In this document: one piece after another, positions 53,707 to 59,609 of the stretch | Position numbering within the stretch: the first letter of the stretch is position 1 | How the letters are laid out: each line of letters opens with the position of its first letter | NCBI RefSeq assembly: GCF_900167415.1 | Contig: NZ_FUWU01000015.1 | Span: 1 to 59,609 of the forward strand | DNA length: 59,609 nt | Source of the DNA: Fibrobacter intestinalis | Lineage (GTDB): Bacteria > Fibrobacterota > Fibrobacteria > Fibrobacterales > Fibrobacteraceae | Direction: 5' to 3' | The notes under the pieces: generated by a model | The model's input: only the letters and a program-made list of their open reading frames with translations | Databases searched by the model: none | What the model was told of the DNA's origin: nothing | Translations under genes and position numbers: made by a program

Positions 53707-54756
53707 ATGACTCTGCATGATTTTAGAAATCCCATTTTCGCACTCGCCATTCTCGCCATCGTTTTCCTCGCCGCCTGTGGCGACGATAGCGGATCTTCCG
53801 CCAGCGGGAACGCCATCCCCGAAGCGGACCCCAATGCGACCCTTGTTTCTCAGGTTCCTGTGGGGGATGTTTACTCGGACATGACTGTCCGCGATGCAAA
53901 CGGCAATGTGGTGGGCGTATTTGACCCGAACACAGGCTACATCACGCTGAGCGATGGAAATGTCGTGACGATGAATGGGGGACTGATTTTGGCCATATCT
54001 TCAAATTCGTTGTTGCCAGAAGTTTCATCCTCTAGCGTAGAAGTTGCGTCGAGCTCGTCTATGACAGAAGTAAGCTCCTCGTCGATGGAAGTCGTTTCCA
54101 GTAGTTCTAGTTCATCTGCAATTTCTTACGGAACTCTCACGGATGCCCGCGATGGTCAGTTCTACAAGACCGTGAAAATCGGCGAGCAAATTTGGATGGC
54201 GGAGAACTTGAACTATGATTACAATGGAGGAACCGCTAAAAGTTACTGCTACAACGACGAGCCGGATTCCTGCGCCAAGTATGGACGGCTCTACACTTGG
54301 GCTGCAGCGATGGACAGTGTCGGGGTCTTTGGCGATGGCGGCAAGGGTTGCGGTGGTTATGGTGTGACATGTAAGGCGACGTATCCGGTTCGCGGTGTCT
54401 GCCCCGAAGGTTGGCATCTGCCCAGTGATGGGGAATGGCAGACTCTGTTTAAGACTGTCGGCGGTACGGGTGTCGCAGGAACAAAGCTGAAGTCCACTAG
54501 TGGCTGGGATGATTATGATGGCAAAAGCGGCAACGGATCGGACAAATACGGCTTTTCCGTGTTGCCGGCGGGCGACCGCCGTGTCGGTGGCAGTTACCTC
54601 GACGCCGGCGAGCACGCCTTCTTCTGGAGTTCTACGGGGGGTAGCAGCTACAATGCGTACTACTGGTACTTCAGCTTCGACATCGAGGACGTGAACTCGG
54701 ATTACGACAGCAAGCACCACGGGTTTTCCGTACGTTGCCTCAGGGACCTCAACTAG
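53707..54756 (+). CDS. FISUMP-domain lipoprotein with hypervariable C-terminus (copy A)
   Basis: A 349-residue lipoprotein (lipobox FLAAC near residue 24). Residues 35-95 hold a short beta region (LVSQVPVGDVYSDMTVRDAN, GYITLSDG). A Ser-rich linker of about 45 residues follows, then the Fibrobacter major paralogous domain: DARDGQFYKTVKIGEQIWMA, ENLNY, AKYGRLYTW, RGVCPEGWHLPSDGEWQ, GFSVLPAG and GFSVRCLRD. The domain is probably a C-type-lectin-like fold; the stretch between LPAG and GFSVRC is hypervariable among copies. It is probably surface-exposed. A GC-rich hairpin follows the stop. Confidence 0.88.
   Translation: MTLHDFRNPIFALAILAIVFLAACGDDSGSSASGNAIPEADPNATLVSQVPVGDVYSDMTVRDANGNVVGVFDPNTGYITLSDGNVVTMNGGLILAISSNSLLPEVSSSSVEVASSSSMTEVSSSSMEVVSSSSSSSAISYGTLTDARDGQFYKTVKIGEQIWMAENLNYDYNGGTAKSYCYNDEPDSCAKYGRLYTWAAAMDSVGVFGDGGKGCGGYGVTCKATYPVRGVCPEGWHLPSDGEWQTLFKTVGGTGVAGTKLKSTSGWDDYDGKSGNGSDKYGFSVLPAGDRRVGGSYLDAGEHAFFWSSTGGSSYNAYYWYFSFDIEDVNSDYDSKHHGFSVRCLRDLN
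54574..54726 (+). other. Candidate DGR variable region A
   Basis: Codons from the LPAG-G end to the GFSVRC block. Compared with 56174-56332 and 56891-57043, most differing codons keep the third base (C or T) and change positions 1 and 2 only: TAC/GAC/AAC, TTC/TCC/AGC, GAC/GCC/GGC, AAC/TTC/TTC, GAC/CAC/TTC. Unvaried codons between them (GCG TAC, TGG, GTG, TCG, AAG, GGG) are identical. Confidence 0.55.
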
Positions 54757-54758
54757 GG

Positions 54759-54776
54759 GCGGGGTAGGGCCCCCGC
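54759..54776 (+). repeat. GC-rich inverted repeat just after copy A
   Basis: GCGGGG and CCCCGC pair across a 6-base loop, three bases past the stop codon of copy A and about 30 bases from the variable stretch. It is not followed by T. GC-rich hairpins at a comparable place help target recognition in known DGRs; here it is seen only after copy A. Confidence 0.5.
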
Positions 54777-54786
54777 TCCTAGCTGA

Positions 54787-54863
54787 GGCCTAGCCGTAGG
54801 CAAGGCCGCCCTTCCTTTTCCGCTGTTTTGCTGTAGTCACGACTATGGAACATTAGGAATTGT
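54787..54863 (+). repeat. Post-FISUMP repeat module, copy 1
   Basis: GGCCTAGCCGTAGGCAAGGC, then TTCCTTTTCCGCTG and GCTGTAGTCACGACTATGGA, ends ACATTAGGAATTGT. It matches 58859-58935 with few changes. It follows the FISUMP stop codon in both places. Confidence 0.8.
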
Positions 54864-54914
54864 CAGTGCTTCGGCACAACCCCAAAAATTCACCTAAAAA
54901 AAGGAGTAATCAAA

Positions 54915-55487
54915 ATGGAAACAATGAAAGAATCAATTCAAAAATTACTGCAATCTATTAATGCGAAGGATTTTAATATAGAAGGTCCTTTCCCAATAAA
55001 AGATTTGCAGGCTGGGAAAGTCGATGTTCCAAAATCTGCCGGAGTTTACTTTGTCGGCAAAATCGATGACACAAAATCCTTGCGGGCTTGTTCGGCAAAA
55101 GCTTGCAATCTCGAAAAGGGGACGCGTGTTAAATGGTATGAATTGGATTCGTTGGAGAAAAAATTGAACGCAGGCGATGTCGTTCTCTATATCGGGAAAG
55201 CGAATCCTGAATCGGAAGATTCTAAGTATGGTTTGAAAGACCGATTAAGGAATTATATGAAAAGCCAAGAAGATTTTCAAAAAGGAAAATCATCAAATCA
55301 TCAAGGTGGGCGCGCCATTTGGCAATTAGAAAATGCCAAAGAACTGGGCGTTTGCTGGATTCAAACCAAAGATGCAAGCGAAGCGAAAGAGCTGGAAAAA
55401 GCTCTGCTGAAAAAATACAAGGAAGACAATCCTAACGCTGGACTTGAAGGTCGCGAGGCTTATCCCTTCGCCAACTGGCGTTTATAA
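54915..55487 (+). CDS. GIY-YIG-like protein, copy 1
   Basis: A 190-residue cytoplasmic protein. The GIY and YIG motifs are GVYFVG (about 44) and VVLYIGKAN (about 93), followed by the conserved Arg in LKDRLRNYM and a candidate catalytic Glu in EAKELEKALLKKYKE. HQGGRAIWQLENA and the end YPFANWRL are shared with the copy at 57210. GIY-YIG folds cut or nick nucleic acids, but the substrate here is unknown and degenerate members exist. It is preceded by AAAAAAAGGAGTAATC, the same leader as copy 2, and ends 29 bases before a FISUMP lipoprotein gene. Confidence 0.72.
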   Translation: METMKESIQKLLQSINAKDFNIEGPFPIKDLQAGKVDVPKSAGVYFVGKIDDTKSLRACSAKACNLEKGTRVKWYELDSLEKKLNAGDVVLYIGKANPESEDSKYGLKDRLRNYMKSQEDFQKGKSSNHQGGRAIWQLENAKELGVCWIQTKDASEAKELEKALLKKYKEDNPNAGLEGREAYPFANWRL

Positions 55488-55516
55488 AAGAATAGCATGG
55501 CCATATAGGAGATTAT

Positions 55517-57073
55517 ATGAATCGGCACAAATTCAAGAAATCGGTTTTAGGTTTGTTGATAATGCTTTTCCTCGCCGCTTGCGGCGACAGCGGCTCTTCC
55601 GTGAATGGGGGACCGATTTCGGCCATATCTTCAAATTCGTTGTTGCCAGAAGTTTCATCCTCTAGCGTAGAAGTTGCGCCGAGCTCGTCTATGACAGAAG
55701 TAAGCTCCTCGTCGATGGAAGTCGTTTCCAGTAGTTCTAGTTCATCTGCAATTTCTTACGGAACTCTCACGGATGCCCGCGATGGTCAGTTCTACAAGAC
55801 CGTGACCATTGGAACCCAAACATGGATGGCGGAGAATTTGAATTATGAGACTGCCAATAGCTACTGCCCCAACGCCGCGCGGGATCTCTGCGTCAAGTAT
55901 GGCAGGCTCTACCTGTGGAGCACCGCCATGGACAGTGCCGGAGTCTTTAGCGACAGCGGCAAGGGCTGTGGTTTTGGCCTGACTTGTTCTGCAAAGGAAC
56001 CGGTTCGCGGAGTCTGCCCCGAAGGCTGGCACCTGCCCAGCAAAGAGGAATGGAATACGTTGTTCGCGGCTGTCGGTGGTGAGTATGTCGCAGGAACAAA
56101 GCTCAAGTCCAAGAGCGGTTGGCTCAATGATGGCAGCACGGACGAATACGGCTTTTCCGTGTTGCCGGCGGGCAGCCGCCTTGGTGGCGGTGACGGTTAC
56201 CACTACGCCGGCGAGCGCGCCGACTTCTGGACTTCTACGGAGGTCAGCAGCGACGATGCGTACTACTGGGAATTCAGCTCCGCCTACGGGCGCGTGTTCT
56301 CGGATTACCACTACCACAAGTACAGCGGGTATTCCGTACGTTGCCTCAGGGACTCGGGTGCTTTTAATGACTCTAGTGCATTTAATCAGAATACGGAGCC
56401 TGTTTCATCCTCTAGCGTAGAAGCTGTGTCGAGTTCATCTATCGATTATGGAGAGTTCACCGATTCCCGTGATGGTCAGGTTTACAAGACTGTGAAAATC
56501 GGCGAGCAAATTTGGATGGCGGAGAATTTGAAGTACGCCTACTTGCAGCCAACAAGTACAGAAGATTCCTCTAGCTTCTGCTACAGAAACGAACCGGATT
56601 CCTGCGCCAAATATGGACGGTTTTATTGGTGGAGTGCCGCGATGGACAGCGCCGGGGTCTTTAGCGATGGCGGCAAGGGCTGCGGCTACAAAGTAAAGTG
56701 CAATGCGACGGAATCGGTTCGAGGCGTTTGTCCGAAAGGTTGGCATTTGCCCAGCAATACGGAATGGAAGATTCTATTCGCGACCGTCGGCGACACGAGT
56801 ATTGCCGGAATACTCCTCAAGTCCAAGAGCGGCTGGTACAGTGATGGCTATGGCATGGACATTTACGGCTTTTCCGTGTTGCCAGCGGGCTACTGCGGTG
56901 GCACTGGCCATTACGGCAATGTCGGCAAGGGCGCTTACTTCTGGAGTTCTACGGAGGACGGCAGCAACGATGCGTACTTCTGGGGCTTCGACAGCGGCTA
57001 CGAGGGCGTGTTCTCGGGTTACTTCGACAAGAGCCTCGGGTATTCCGTCCGTTGCCTCAAGGACTCAGAGTGA
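55517..57073 (+). CDS. Double-domain FISUMP lipoprotein (copies B and C)
   Basis: A 518-residue lipoprotein (MNRHKFKKSVLGLLIML, lipobox LAAC). Unlike copy A it lacks the N-terminal beta region and goes directly to the Ser-rich linker, which is nearly identical to that of copy A over about 200 bases. Two FISUMP domains follow, joined by a second short Ser linker: B (about residues 82-280, ending GYSVRCLRDSG) and C (about 312-517, ending GYSVRCLKDSE). Both have the GVCPxGWHLPS, GFSVLPAG and FWxSTE blocks. Their C-terminal stretches carry the same codon-position pattern of variation as copy A. AGGAG precedes the start. Confidence 0.88.
   Translation: MNRHKFKKSVLGLLIMLFLAACGDSGSSVNGGPISAISSNSLLPEVSSSSVEVAPSSSMTEVSSSSMEVVSSSSSSSAISYGTLTDARDGQFYKTVTIGTQTWMAENLNYETANSYCPNAARDLCVKYGRLYLWSTAMDSAGVFSDSGKGCGFGLTCSAKEPVRGVCPEGWHLPSKEEWNTLFAAVGGEYVAGTKLKSKSGWLNDGSTDEYGFSVLPAGSRLGGGDGYHYAGERADFWTSTEVSSDDAYYWEFSSAYGRVFSDYHYHKYSGYSVRCLRDSGAFNDSSAFNQNTEPVSSSSVEAVSSSSIDYGEFTDSRDGQVYKTVKIGEQIWMAENLKYAYLQPTSTEDSSSFCYRNEPDSCAKYGRFYWWSAAMDSAGVFSDGGKGCGYKVKCNATESVRGVCPKGWHLPSNTEWKILFATVGDTSIAGILLKSKSGWYSDGYGMDIYGFSVLPAGYCGGTGHYGNVGKGAYFWSSTEDGSNDAYFWGFDSGYEGVFSGYFDKSLGYSVRCLKDSE
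56174..56332 (+). other. Candidate DGR variable region B
   Basis: Variable stretch of the first FISUMP domain. In the first block its codons read AGC CGC CTT GGT GGC, GAC GGT TAC CAC TAC, with CGC and GAC where copy A has CAC and TTC. One codon longer than copies A and C in each of the two sub-blocks. Confidence 0.55.
56891..57043 (+). other. Candidate DGR variable region C
   Basis: Variable stretch of the second FISUMP domain of the same gene, with TAC TGC GGT GGC ACT, TTC tgg GGC TTC GAC AGC, and TTC GAC aag AGC CTC before GGG TAT TCC. The frame ending is conserved (GGG TAT TCC GTC CGT TGC). Confidence 0.55.
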
Positions 57074-57077
57074 GGCA

Positions 57078-57170
57078 GCCCTTCGATAAGCGGTCTCTGA
57101 GCCTTGGTTAGCGTGCTTTGAGAACCGGTCCCTGAGCTTGTCGAAGGGCCGCAACCATGCTTCGGCAAGT
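57078..57170. repeat. TTCGA..CTCAGGGACC repeat cluster
   Basis: Several half-units: CCCTTCGATAAGCGGTCTCT, GGTCCCTGAGCTTGTCGAAG, ATGCTTCGGCAAG, in both orientations, between the double-domain FISUMP gene and the second GIY-YIG gene. It replaces the post-FISUMP module seen after the other two FISUMP genes. Confidence 0.7.
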
Positions 57171-57209
57171 ACAATCCCAAAAATTCACCTAAAAAAAGGA
57201 GTAATCACA

Positions 57210-57797
57210 ATGGAAACAATGAAAGAAATCGAAGGACTCGTGCACTTAGGTTCTATCCAAAAATTTCAAAATTGCATGCCTCAAATTCGAGAAAGAATTC
57301 GAAATGTCCCCAAAAAGGATGTTCACCGGATTAAAGACTTGATTGCTAGCATCAAGAATAAGAATTGCGAAATCCCCGAAGCTCCCGGGCTTTATTTTGT
57401 CGGGCAGTGGACGGAGCCCCAAAATTTGACTTTATGCACCGCCGAGTCCCTTGAATACAAGGCGATAAAAGGCGGCTGGTTCGATAAAAAATGGGAAGCA
57501 GTCAATGAAAAATTGAAGCGAAATTCGAGATTGCTCTATATCGGCAAAGCCGAAAATCTAAATGACAGAGTTTCTTGCTATATGGAATTTGTCGATGACA
57601 TCGTAAAGGGCAAAACATCAAAAAAATCCCATCGTGGTGGACGTGCGATTTGCTTGCTAAAGGAAGTTCCTGAATTGGAAATCTTCTGGTTTTCCCTTTC
57701 TGGTTTGGATATCGATCCGGAAATTGTAGAAAAGCAGCTTCTCTTGAATTATAAGGCTGCACATCATGACTATCCCTTCGCCAACTGGCGTTTATGA
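57210..57797 (+). CDS. GIY-YIG-like protein, copy 2
   Basis: A 195-residue paralogue of the protein at 54915. It starts METMKEIEGL (copy 1 METMKESIQK) from the same AAAAAAAGGAG leader. GLYFVG and LLYIGKAENLNDRVSCYM give the GIY and YIG motifs and Arg; KKSHRGGRAICLLKEV and DYPFANWRL match copy 1. Between the two motifs the sequences differ strongly. A Glu (PEIVEKQLLLNYKAA) stands at the expected catalytic place. The stop is 23 bases before the start of the next FISUMP lipoprotein gene, with AGGAG in between. Confidence 0.72.
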   Translation: METMKEIEGLVHLGSIQKFQNCMPQIRERIRNVPKKDVHRIKDLIASIKNKNCEIPEAPGLYFVGQWTEPQNLTLCTAESLEYKAIKGGWFDKKWEAVNEKLKRNSRLLYIGKAENLNDRVSCYMEFVDDIVKGKTSKKSHRGGRAICLLKEVPELEIFWFSLSGLDIDPEIVEKQLLLNYKAAHHDYPFANWRL

Positions 57798-57820
57798 AGA
57801 ACGGCCATACAGGAGATCAT

Positions 57821-58843
57821 ATGAATCGGCACAAATTCAAGAAATCCATTTTAGGGTTAATGATAATGCTTTTTCTCGCCGCCTGCAGCGACAGCGGCTC
57901 TTCCGTGAATGGAAACACTATTCCCGAAGCAGACTCCAATACAACCCTTGTCTCTCAGGTTCCTGTGGGGGATGTTTACTCGGATTTGACCGTCCGCGAT
58001 GCAAACGGCAGTGTGGTGGGCGTATTTGATCCGAACACAGGCTACATCACGTTGAGCGATGGAAGAGTCGTGACAATGGACGGTAATTCGATTTTTGAGT
58101 CGTCATCCAGCTCGTCGGCAATCGTTTCTTCGTCCAGTGAAAAAGTTTCCAGCTCGTCTGTAACGGAAATCCAGGAAAAGCCGAACTGGAAATATCTGAA
58201 TCCATACATCTCCTACGGGATGTTTCAGGACTCCCGCGACGGTCAGGTTTACAAGACCGTGAAAATTGGCGATCAAATTTGGATGGCGGAGAATTTGAAT
58301 TACGCTTATTTGCAGCCAACAAGTACAGAAGTTTCCTCCAGTTTCTGCTACAGCAACAAGCCGGATTCTTGCGCCAAATACGGAAGGCTCTACCTTTGGA
58401 GTGCTGCCATGGACAGTGCCGGGGTCTTTGGCGATGGTGGCAAGGGCTGTGGTTATTATGGCAAAACTTGCTCTGCAAAGGAATCAATTCGCGGAGTCTG
58501 CCCCGAAGGCTGGCACCTGCCTAGTAATGCGGAATGGTGGACTTTGATTGAGACTATCGGCGACACGAGTGTCGCCGGGAAAAAGCTCAAATCCGCTAAC
58601 GGATGGTACAAAGGCGATAATGGTACGGATGAATACGGCTTTTCCGTGTTGCCTTCAGGATTTCTTTATGACTATGGGGCTTTTGCTAAAGTTGGTGAAT
58701 TTCCTCATTTTTGGACTTCTACGGAGGGGAGTAGCAGTCGCACATACGCTTGGCAACTTTACCATGACATTGGACGAGCAAAACCGTATACCGATATTAA
58801 AAATTATGGATTCTCGATTCGTTGCGTCAAGGATTTTGACTGA
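57821..58843 (+). CDS. FISUMP-domain lipoprotein (copy D)
   Basis: A 340-residue lipoprotein (MNRHKFKKSILGLMIMLFLA, lipobox FLAAC), with the beta region of copy A (VSQVPVGDVYSDLTVRDANG), Ser linker and one FISUMP domain (DSRDGQVYKTVKIGDQIWMA, RGVCPEGWHLPSNAEWWTL, GFSVLPSG, GFSIRCVKDFD). The ATG at 57821 was chosen for its AGGAG site and because it opens the signal peptide; the track-length start upstream lies in the GIY-YIG gene end. Its C-terminal stretch uses mixed codons (GCT AAA GTT GGT GAA) and does not share the NNC pattern of copies A-C. Confidence 0.88.
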   Translation: MNRHKFKKSILGLMIMLFLAACSDSGSSVNGNTIPEADSNTTLVSQVPVGDVYSDLTVRDANGSVVGVFDPNTGYITLSDGRVVTMDGNSIFESSSSSSAIVSSSSEKVSSSSVTEIQEKPNWKYLNPYISYGMFQDSRDGQVYKTVKIGDQIWMAENLNYAYLQPTSTEVSSSFCYSNKPDSCAKYGRLYLWSAAMDSAGVFGDGGKGCGYYGKTCSAKESIRGVCPEGWHLPSNAEWWTLIETIGDTSVAGKKLKSANGWYKGDNGTDEYGFSVLPSGFLYDYGAFAKVGEFPHFWTSTEGSSSRTYAWQLYHDIGRAKPYTDIKNYGFSIRCVKDFD

Positions 58844-59102: not shown

Positions 59103-59132
59103 CATCCAAAAATCTGGATGTCTTTTCTTTTT
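59103..59132 (+). terminator. Attenuator-like hairpin in the leader of the nuclease gene
   Basis: CATCCA and TGGATG pair across a 6-base loop and are followed by TCTTTTCTTTTTC, then the AAAGGAG ribosome site. A terminator-like structure lies inside the 5' leader. Confidence 0.5.
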
Positions 59133-59144
59133 CAAAGGAGCACT

Positions 59145-59609
59145 ATGCCCGCGCAAAATCCGCAATTCTCGCAAATCTCGCAATTTCCGCAAAATCCGTC
59201 CCTCGACAGGGCCCACGACAAGGGCACCGAAGCCGGGGAAAGCCGCATCCCGCCCATCCTCCGGGGGAAAACCTACCTGGACCCGCTCTACGACCCCGCC
59301 TTCCGCGCCTTCTTCTCCGACGAGGCCGCCCTGAAGGACTTTCTCGACGCCCTGCTCCGCCTGCCCCCGGGACGCCGCATCGAACGGCTCTCCTTCACTT
59401 TCGCGGACCCCGTGGAGTTCCGCATCCCCGGGCCGAAGACGGTGGTCTTCGACATCCACGCCTTCACCGAGGACGGACGCTTCCTGGACATCGAGATGCA
59501 GCGGGCGAAGCACTCCTTCCTCGTGGACCGGATGCTGCTCTACAGCGCGTTCCTCGCCATCAAGGGCAAGCAGGCGATGGAGTCCTCGCCGGAAAGCCTC
59601 TCCCTGGAA
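59145..59609 (+). CDS. PD-(D/E)XK nuclease / Rpn-like transposase, 3' part outside window
   Basis: The first 155 residues of a protein running off the window. A Gln- and Pro-rich N-terminal run (QNPQFSQISQFPQNPS) precedes the domain: YLDPLYDPAFRAFFSDEAAL, LKDFLDALLRLPPGRRIERL, then the nuclease core VVFDIHAFTEDGRFLDIEMQ with D and ExQ, and RAKHSFLVDRMLLYSAFLA. This is the layout of recombination-promoting nucleases of the Rpn family. The coding sequence is much richer in GC than its neighbours (most codons end in C or G), which suggests recent transfer. Strong promoter and AAAGGAG site. Confidence 0.85.
   Translation, partial: MPAQNPQFSQISQFPQNPSLDRAHDKGTEAGESRIPPILRGKTYLDPLYDPAFRAFFSDEAALKDFLDALLRLPPGRRIERLSFTFADPVEFRIPGPKTVVFDIHAFTEDGRFLDIEMQRAKHSFLVDRMLLYSAFLAIKGKQAMESSPESLSLE

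What the first reader, a model, noticed from the sequence alone, without database searches (positions are those of the whole stretch)
53707..58843. Alternating array of GIY-YIG-like proteins and FISUMP lipoproteins
The order is FISUMP, GIY-YIG, double FISUMP, GIY-YIG, FISUMP. Each GIY-YIG gene has the same AAAAAAAGGAG leader and METMKE start, ends YPFANWRL, and directly precedes a MNRHKFKK lipoprotein. This repeated pair looks like a cassette multiplied in tandem. A cytoplasmic nuclease-fold protein coupled to a surface lipoprotein is unusual and suggests that the nuclease fold helps recombine, spread or diversify the lipoprotein genes, or acts as a paired defence module.
Basis: partly seen in the sequence, partly recalled or inferred. 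Interest (0 to 1): 0.75.

Follow-up and report, generated by a model that had tools for sequence, protein, structure and literature searches.

The report
Mutating lipoprotein genes with passenger nucleases
The surface-lipoprotein genes in this cluster are targets of a mutation machine (a diversity-generating retroelement) encoded elsewhere in the same genome, and the two nuclease-like genes between them look like rare, separately acquired passengers rather than the cause of the diversity.

Summary
One template repeat (TR) with its reverse transcriptase (RT) lies on another contig (C92) of the same genome. In three of the window's four FISUMP domains, 94 of 177 template adenines are changed against 30 of 411 other bases. 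A 12-bp hairpin follows the variable repeat (VR) of the first gene. Ten VRs lie on six contigs. Relatives of the RT occur in 28 of 111 genomes of the family, 15 of them with a FISUMP-type TR/VR pair in the stretch examined. The two interleaved proteins are GIY-YIG type by motif, with all catalytic residues kept, but the clade is seen in only 2 of 167 genomes of the phylum. None of 80 more distant relatives sits near a FISUMP gene; they often neighbour restriction or WYL genes. The two copies are not a recent tandem duplication: the second groups with a gene of another species, and only the ends are near-identical. Best reading: a DGR target array carrying passenger, defence-type nucleases (DGR part about 0.97 sure, passenger part about 0.6).

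The parts
53707..54756 (+). F1: FISUMP lipoprotein gene, DGR target
   Evidence: PF09603 E 6e-34, TIGR02145 E 6e-62; lipobox LFLAAC-type start (sequence)
54551..54746 (+). Variable repeat of F1
   Evidence: against the C92 template: 28/59 adenines changed, 8/137 other bases, p 5e-11
54753..54782 (+). 12-bp GC-rich hairpin with 6-nt loop directly behind the VR; includes the stop codon of F1
   Evidence: same hairpin behind both C92 VRs and the C116 VR, not behind the template
54787..54807 (+). Second hairpin behind the VR
   Evidence: found behind other FISUMP genes too
54876..54932 (+). Leader with AAAAAAAGGAG and METMKE start, copy 1
   Evidence: 57 nt, 96% identical to copy 2
54915..55487 (+). 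GIY-YIG-type protein 1 (190 aa)
   Evidence: GIY/YIG tyrosines, Arg110, Glu161, Asn187 invariant in 18 relatives; relatives match PF20815 and PF01541
55461..55488 (+). Shared 3' end (YPFANWRL), copy 1
   Evidence: 28 nt, 96% identical to copy 2
55517..57073 (+). F2: lipoprotein gene with two FISUMP domains, DGR target
   Evidence: PF09603 twice; TIGR02145 twice
56151..56352 (+). Variable repeat of F2, first domain (internal)
   Evidence: 33/59 adenines changed, 10/137 other bases, p 5e-13
56868..57063 (+). Variable repeat of F2, second domain
   Evidence: 33/59 adenines changed, 12/137 other bases, p 5e-12
57171..57227 (+). Leader, copy 2
57210..57797 (+). GIY-YIG-type protein 2 (195 aa)
   Evidence: same motif set; sister to the G001 gene, not to protein 1
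57771..57798 (+). Shared 3' end, copy 2
57821..58843 (+). F3: FISUMP lipoprotein gene; its C-terminus is not a VR of this template
   Evidence: PF09603 E 4e-35; 29/59 adenines against 52/136 other bases changed, p 0.1
59118..59609 (+). Rpn/PDDEXK_2 family gene, cut by the contig end; the same kind of gene follows the FISUMP loci on C92 and C116
   Evidence: PF12784 E 6e-12; three of five matches in the genome lie there

Best explanation
The array is a cluster of remote target genes of one diversity-generating retroelement. RNA from the single template repeat on contig C92 is copied by the DGR reverse transcriptase with errors at adenines, and the cDNA replaces the matching 3' part of FISUMP genes in trans (F1, F2a and F2b in this window; others on C92, C116, C53, C29 and C41). 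This varies the C-terminal domain of surface lipoproteins. Shown: template, RT, the adenine-only difference pattern, the hairpin behind F1, and the number and places of the VRs. Inferred: that it is active today, and that the FISUMP domain binds ligands. The two GIY-YIG genes are not part of this machine. They are separately acquired restriction/defence-type nucleases sitting in the repeat-rich array, whose near-identical flanks keep recombining, so that the ends and signal-peptide regions became alike while the nuclease bodies did not.
For: Template and RT on C92; RVT_1 match, YVDD and GxxxSQ. Adenine-only differences in F1, F2a, F2b and in 10 VRs genome-wide. Hairpins behind the VRs of F1, C92, C116, C41 and not behind the TR, as required in phage BPP-1 (PMC3240598). 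Family-wide FISUMP-type TR/VR pairs at DGR RT loci. Passenger part: GIY-YIG in 2 of 167 phylum genomes against DGR RT in 28 of 111 family genomes; GIY2 sister to another species' gene at a different locus; no FISUMP and no DGR RT near 80 relatives, but Mrr_cat, WYL, type I specificity and methylase neighbours.
Against: All three GIY-YIG genes of this clade lie directly 3' of a variable or variable-like gene, and both genomes that have the clade also have a DGR RT (one as a fragment at a contig end), which a pure passenger would do only by chance (both among 28 of 111, about 0.06 by hand). No expression, activity or population data. The template is on another contig of a draft assembly.
Confidence: 0.75

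Rival explanations
1. The GIY-YIG proteins help the DGR: they nick the target at or near the VR and so prime or speed mutagenic homing.
For: Directly 3' of variable genes in all three cases; co-occurs with a DGR RT in both genomes; the catalytic residues are kept; the homing model postulates a nick or break at the target (PMC3240598).
Against: 26 of 28 DGR genomes of the family lack it; it is absent from the RT locus itself and from the other target loci; relatives elsewhere have no DGR RT nearby; no held paper links the two (one review that only mentions both).
Confidence: 0.07
2. The GIY-YIG genes are selfish, homing-endonuclease-like elements that spread by cutting FISUMP arrays, using the repeated flanks as homology.
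For: GIY-YIG is a classic homing nuclease fold; near-identical flanks around divergent bodies; sporadic distribution; different loci in two species.
Against: They are intact genes with their own ribosome-binding sites, not inside an intron, intein or coding sequence; the flanks do not recur around any further gene of this genome; relatives elsewhere sit near restriction-type genes.
Confidence: 0.12
3. GIY-YIG and lipoprotein form one functional two-gene module (for instance a defence pair with a surface sensor).
For: Short gaps (about 25-30 bp) suggest co-transcription of each GIY-YIG gene with the FISUMP gene that follows; restriction-like neighbours of relatives.
Against: 46 other FISUMP matches of this genome have no such partner; gene order is reversed in G001; the two proteins are in different compartments; no PADLOC match.
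Confidence: 0.1
4. The FISUMP C-termini differ by ordinary divergence and gene conversion between paralogues, without a DGR.
For: The array is a mosaic: F1/F2 share 247 nt at 94%, F1/F3 195 nt at 87%; F3 shows ordinary divergence.
Against: Changes are confined to template adenines (94/177 against 30/411), and the same pattern recurs with other templates across the family.
Confidence: 0.02

Closest known systems
Diversity-generating retroelements with Fib_succ_major / DUF1566 variable proteins (human gut metagenomes, PMC4159848)
   Same: RT, template repeat with adenine-directed changes, VR at the 3' end of genes with a Fib_succ_major domain, one described as a predicted lipoprotein
   Different: here one template serves about ten VRs on six contigs, including a gene with two VRs and an array with GIY-YIG genes between the targets; the accessory gene has no Pfam match
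DGRs with remote variable-protein paralogues (cyanobacteria, PMC7517822; Treponema denticola TvpA, from memory)
   Same: targets away from the RT locus, C-terminal variable domain, hairpins proposed to mark targets
   Different: targets are FISUMP lipoproteins, not CLec-kinase fusions
Bordetella phage BPP-1 DGR (PMC3240598)
   Same: GC-rich hairpin directly behind the VR and not behind the TR, overlapping the stop codon in F1
   Different: 12-bp stem with 6-nt loop, followed by a second hairpin, against 7-10 bp and a GRNA loop of 4 nt
GIY-YIG nuclease superfamily (UvrC/Cho, Slx1, COG3680, homing and restriction enzymes; PMC1564403), Pfam PF20815 / PF01541
   Same: GIY, YIG, Arg, Glu and Asn in order
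   Different: the window proteins reach no Pfam family alone; extra conserved H.GGR.I motif; no added domain

Membership tests
Diversity-generating retroelement | reverse transcriptase with YxDD and the DGR-type GxxxSQ motif | tested here: met
   C92 ORF L111:6365-7537, PF00078 E 3.5e-14, IGNLTSQ and YVDD
Diversity-generating retroelement | template repeat beside the RT | tested here: met
   L111:6158-6353, ending 12 nt before the RT reading frame
Diversity-generating retroelement | variable repeats differing from the template almost only at adenines | tested here: met
   10 VRs with p from 1e-8 to 4e-17, three in the window
Diversity-generating retroelement | VR at the 3' end of the target gene | tested here: met
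   F1 and F2b end 7-10 nt behind the VR; F2a is internal in a two-domain gene
Diversity-generating retroelement | hairpin/cruciform behind the VR | tested here: met
   F1, both C92 genes, C116 and C41a; not behind F2a, F2b, C53 or C29 in this form
Diversity-generating retroelement | accessory protein (Avd or other) | tested here: inconclusive
   262-aa gene between target and template, conserved at 21 RT loci of the family, no Pfam or NCBIfam match
Diversity-generating retroelement | C-type lectin fold of the variable protein | not testable with these tools
   structure prediction switched off; no PDB sequence match
Diversity-generating retroelement | RT-dependent mutagenic homing observed | not testable with these tools
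   needs culture or population reads
GIY-YIG nuclease superfamily | GIY and YIG motifs with Tyr, Tyr, Arg, Glu, Asn | tested here: met
   Y45, Y92, R110, E161 and N187 invariant in 18 sequences
GIY-YIG nuclease superfamily | match to a curated profile | tested here: inconclusive
   none for the window proteins; 13 of 18 members match PF20815 and 6 match PF01541 at E up to 1, best 2.5e-4 and 2.3e-6
GIY-YIG nuclease superfamily | GIY-YIG fold | not testable with these tools
   structure prediction switched off
Known anti-phage defence systems (PADLOC) | match to a defence protein model | tested here: not met
   no hit at E up to 1

The most novel reading that the evidence does not exclude
A free-standing GIY-YIG nuclease has been recruited to a DGR and nicks target genes beside the variable repeat, raising or directing mutagenic homing of FISUMP lipoproteins.
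Probability: 0.07. Interest if true: 0.85.

Novelty: new member of a known kind. Interest (0 to 1): 0.6.

Why it matters
That makes surface variation in such bacteria directly testable, with the exact template, RT and target coordinates in hand. It also shows that the striking nuclease/lipoprotein alternation is best read as passengers in a recombining target array, while leaving a small, testable chance that the nuclease aids DGR homing.

Tried and rejected
Phage origin of the GIY-YIG: no match in 50,697 phages; viral contigs gave only one false positive without a GIY-YIG gene. Further genes with the same leader: the C94 and C78 matches lie at unrelated genes and are short, probably chance. 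Recent tandem duplication of the nuclease: rejected by the tree, with the caveat that the rows are divergent and branches long. Inherited shared locus with G001: rejected, because the TerC neighbour of G001 lies in this genome beside a tryptophan-synthase-like gene without FISUMP or GIY-YIG. A VR in F3: rejected. Template in G001: not found in its assembly; that its FISUMP-like genes are VRs rests on codon pattern only, and only an RT fragment at a contig start is held. No sigma-70 promoter or terminator excess over shuffles in the array.

Full report
On the + strand lie FISUMP F1 (53707-54756), GIY-YIG 1 (54915-55487), double FISUMP F2 (55517-57073), GIY-YIG 2 (57210-57797), FISUMP F3 (57821-58843), then an Rpn/PDDEXK_2 gene cut by the contig end. 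The leader, the METMKE start, the YPFANWRL end and the MNRHKFKK start of the next gene recur almost identically. The bodies of the two nuclease genes do not: sliding identity is 97-100% at the leader and start, about 50-77% over most of the body, and about 90% again at the end and into the next gene.

What the FISUMP genes are. Contig C92 of the same genome carries two FISUMP genes, a 262-aa gene, an asparagine-codon-rich copy of a FISUMP C-terminus, and a reverse transcriptase. Aligning that copy with the window shows changes almost only where the copy has A: F1 28/59 A against 8/137 other bases, F2a 33/59 against 10/137, F2b 33/59 against 12/137; F3 does not show it (29/59 against 52/136). 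Over the three VRs there are 52 A>G, 26 A>T and 16 A>C changes and 30 changes of all other bases. This is the template/variable repeat signature of a DGR. A genome-wide search finds the one exact template and 11 other copies on seven contigs, of which 10, on six contigs, have a significant adenine bias. The RT has YVDD and GxxxSQ. A 12-bp hairpin followed by a second one stands directly behind the VRs of F1, both C92 genes and the C116 gene, with a shorter form on C41, and not behind the template. A hairpin at this place is needed for homing in phage BPP-1 (PMC3240598), though there with a 7-10 bp stem and a 4-nt GRNA loop. The C116 VR is shifted out of frame.

Spread. RT relatives at E below 1e-20 occur in 28 of 111 genomes of the family. 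In the stretches held around them, 15 genomes (this one included) show a FISUMP-type TR/VR pair with the same adenine bias, and four more show a pair of another kind. The 262-aa gene is conserved at 21 of these RT loci and has no Pfam match, so it is probably an accessory part of this DGR type (inference). Fib_succ_major (= FISUMP) domains as DGR targets are known from human gut metagenomes (PMC4159848), and remote targets are known too (PMC7517822). I found no held paper that describes it for Fibrobacter; most subscription papers are not held.

The nuclease-like genes. Both keep the GIY and YIG tyrosines, Arg, Glu and Asn. Neither hits Pfam alone, but 13 of 18 members of the wider family match GIY_YIG_2 and 6 match GIY-YIG, and UvrC is the nearest PDB entry, weakly. 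The fold could not be modelled. At the thresholds used the clade occurs in 2 of 167 genomes of the phylum: this one and a congener, G001, where the gene lies directly 3' of an Lcl_C/FISUMP-like gene. That gene and its paralogues vary at NNC codons in DGR fashion, but the template is missing from that assembly. GIY2 is sister to the G001 gene (100/95), with GIY1 outside, and the G001 locus is a different locus. So the two copies here are old and distinct, and the shared ends most likely come from recombination between flanks (inference).

Elsewhere, 80 relatives in Bacteroidota, Actinomycetota, Bacillota and others have no FISUMP gene and no DGR RT in the stretches held (up to 4 kb each side). 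Among 65 co-directed neighbours, 6 have Mrr_cat, 7 WYL, 3 type I specificity and 3 N6-methylase domains, with single C5-methylase and YhcG-type nuclease cases. This points to restriction- or defence-like nucleases (inference), although no defence model matches the proteins themselves.

How it most likely works. The DGR rewrites the ends of FISUMP lipoproteins at many loci in trans; the array in the window is one cluster of such targets, and the GIY-YIG genes ride in it. What keeps a different reading open is that all three nuclease genes seen in the phylum follow a variable or variable-like gene, and both host genomes have a DGR RT or a fragment of one. Against it, 26 of 28 DGR genomes in the family do without the nuclease. 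I put the DGR part at about 0.97 and the passenger part at about 0.6.

Noticed in passing
L111:5263-6051 (own genome, C92) and L116-L144, L170-L173: A 262-aa protein without Pfam or NCBIfam match lies between target and template and is conserved at 21 DGR RT loci of the family; its C-terminal half looks like a basic helical bundle, perhaps an Avd counterpart.
   Followed up: partly
window:59118-59609; own genome C92:18762-19040; C116:6785-7063: Three of the five PDDEXK_2/Rpn matches of the genome stand directly behind DGR target or RT loci, and all three contigs end inside the gene, so the contigs may be neighbours or share a mobile repeat.
   Followed up: partly
window:55517-57073: One lipoprotein gene carries two FISUMP domains, each with its own variable repeat; the internal VR has no hairpin behind it.
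   Followed up: partly
L110:6018-6215 (own genome, C116): A young VR (29/59 adenines, 1/137 other bases changed) lies in a gene that goes out of frame inside the VR.
   Followed up: no
L136, L137, L140, L141: Four family genomes have a second, distant DGR kind whose template reads like ..RNNNNNAWNFNNNGNFNNNNFNNA.., not FISUMP.
   Followed up: no
L004:1-657, L175-L178 (genome G001): Several Lcl_C/FISUMP-like paralogues vary at NNC codons between fixed blocks, as DGR targets do, but no template is in the assembly; the RT is cut at a contig start.
   Followed up: partly
window:59046-59073: A perfect TTGACA-16-TATAAT promoter-like site stands before the Rpn-like gene.
   Followed up: no
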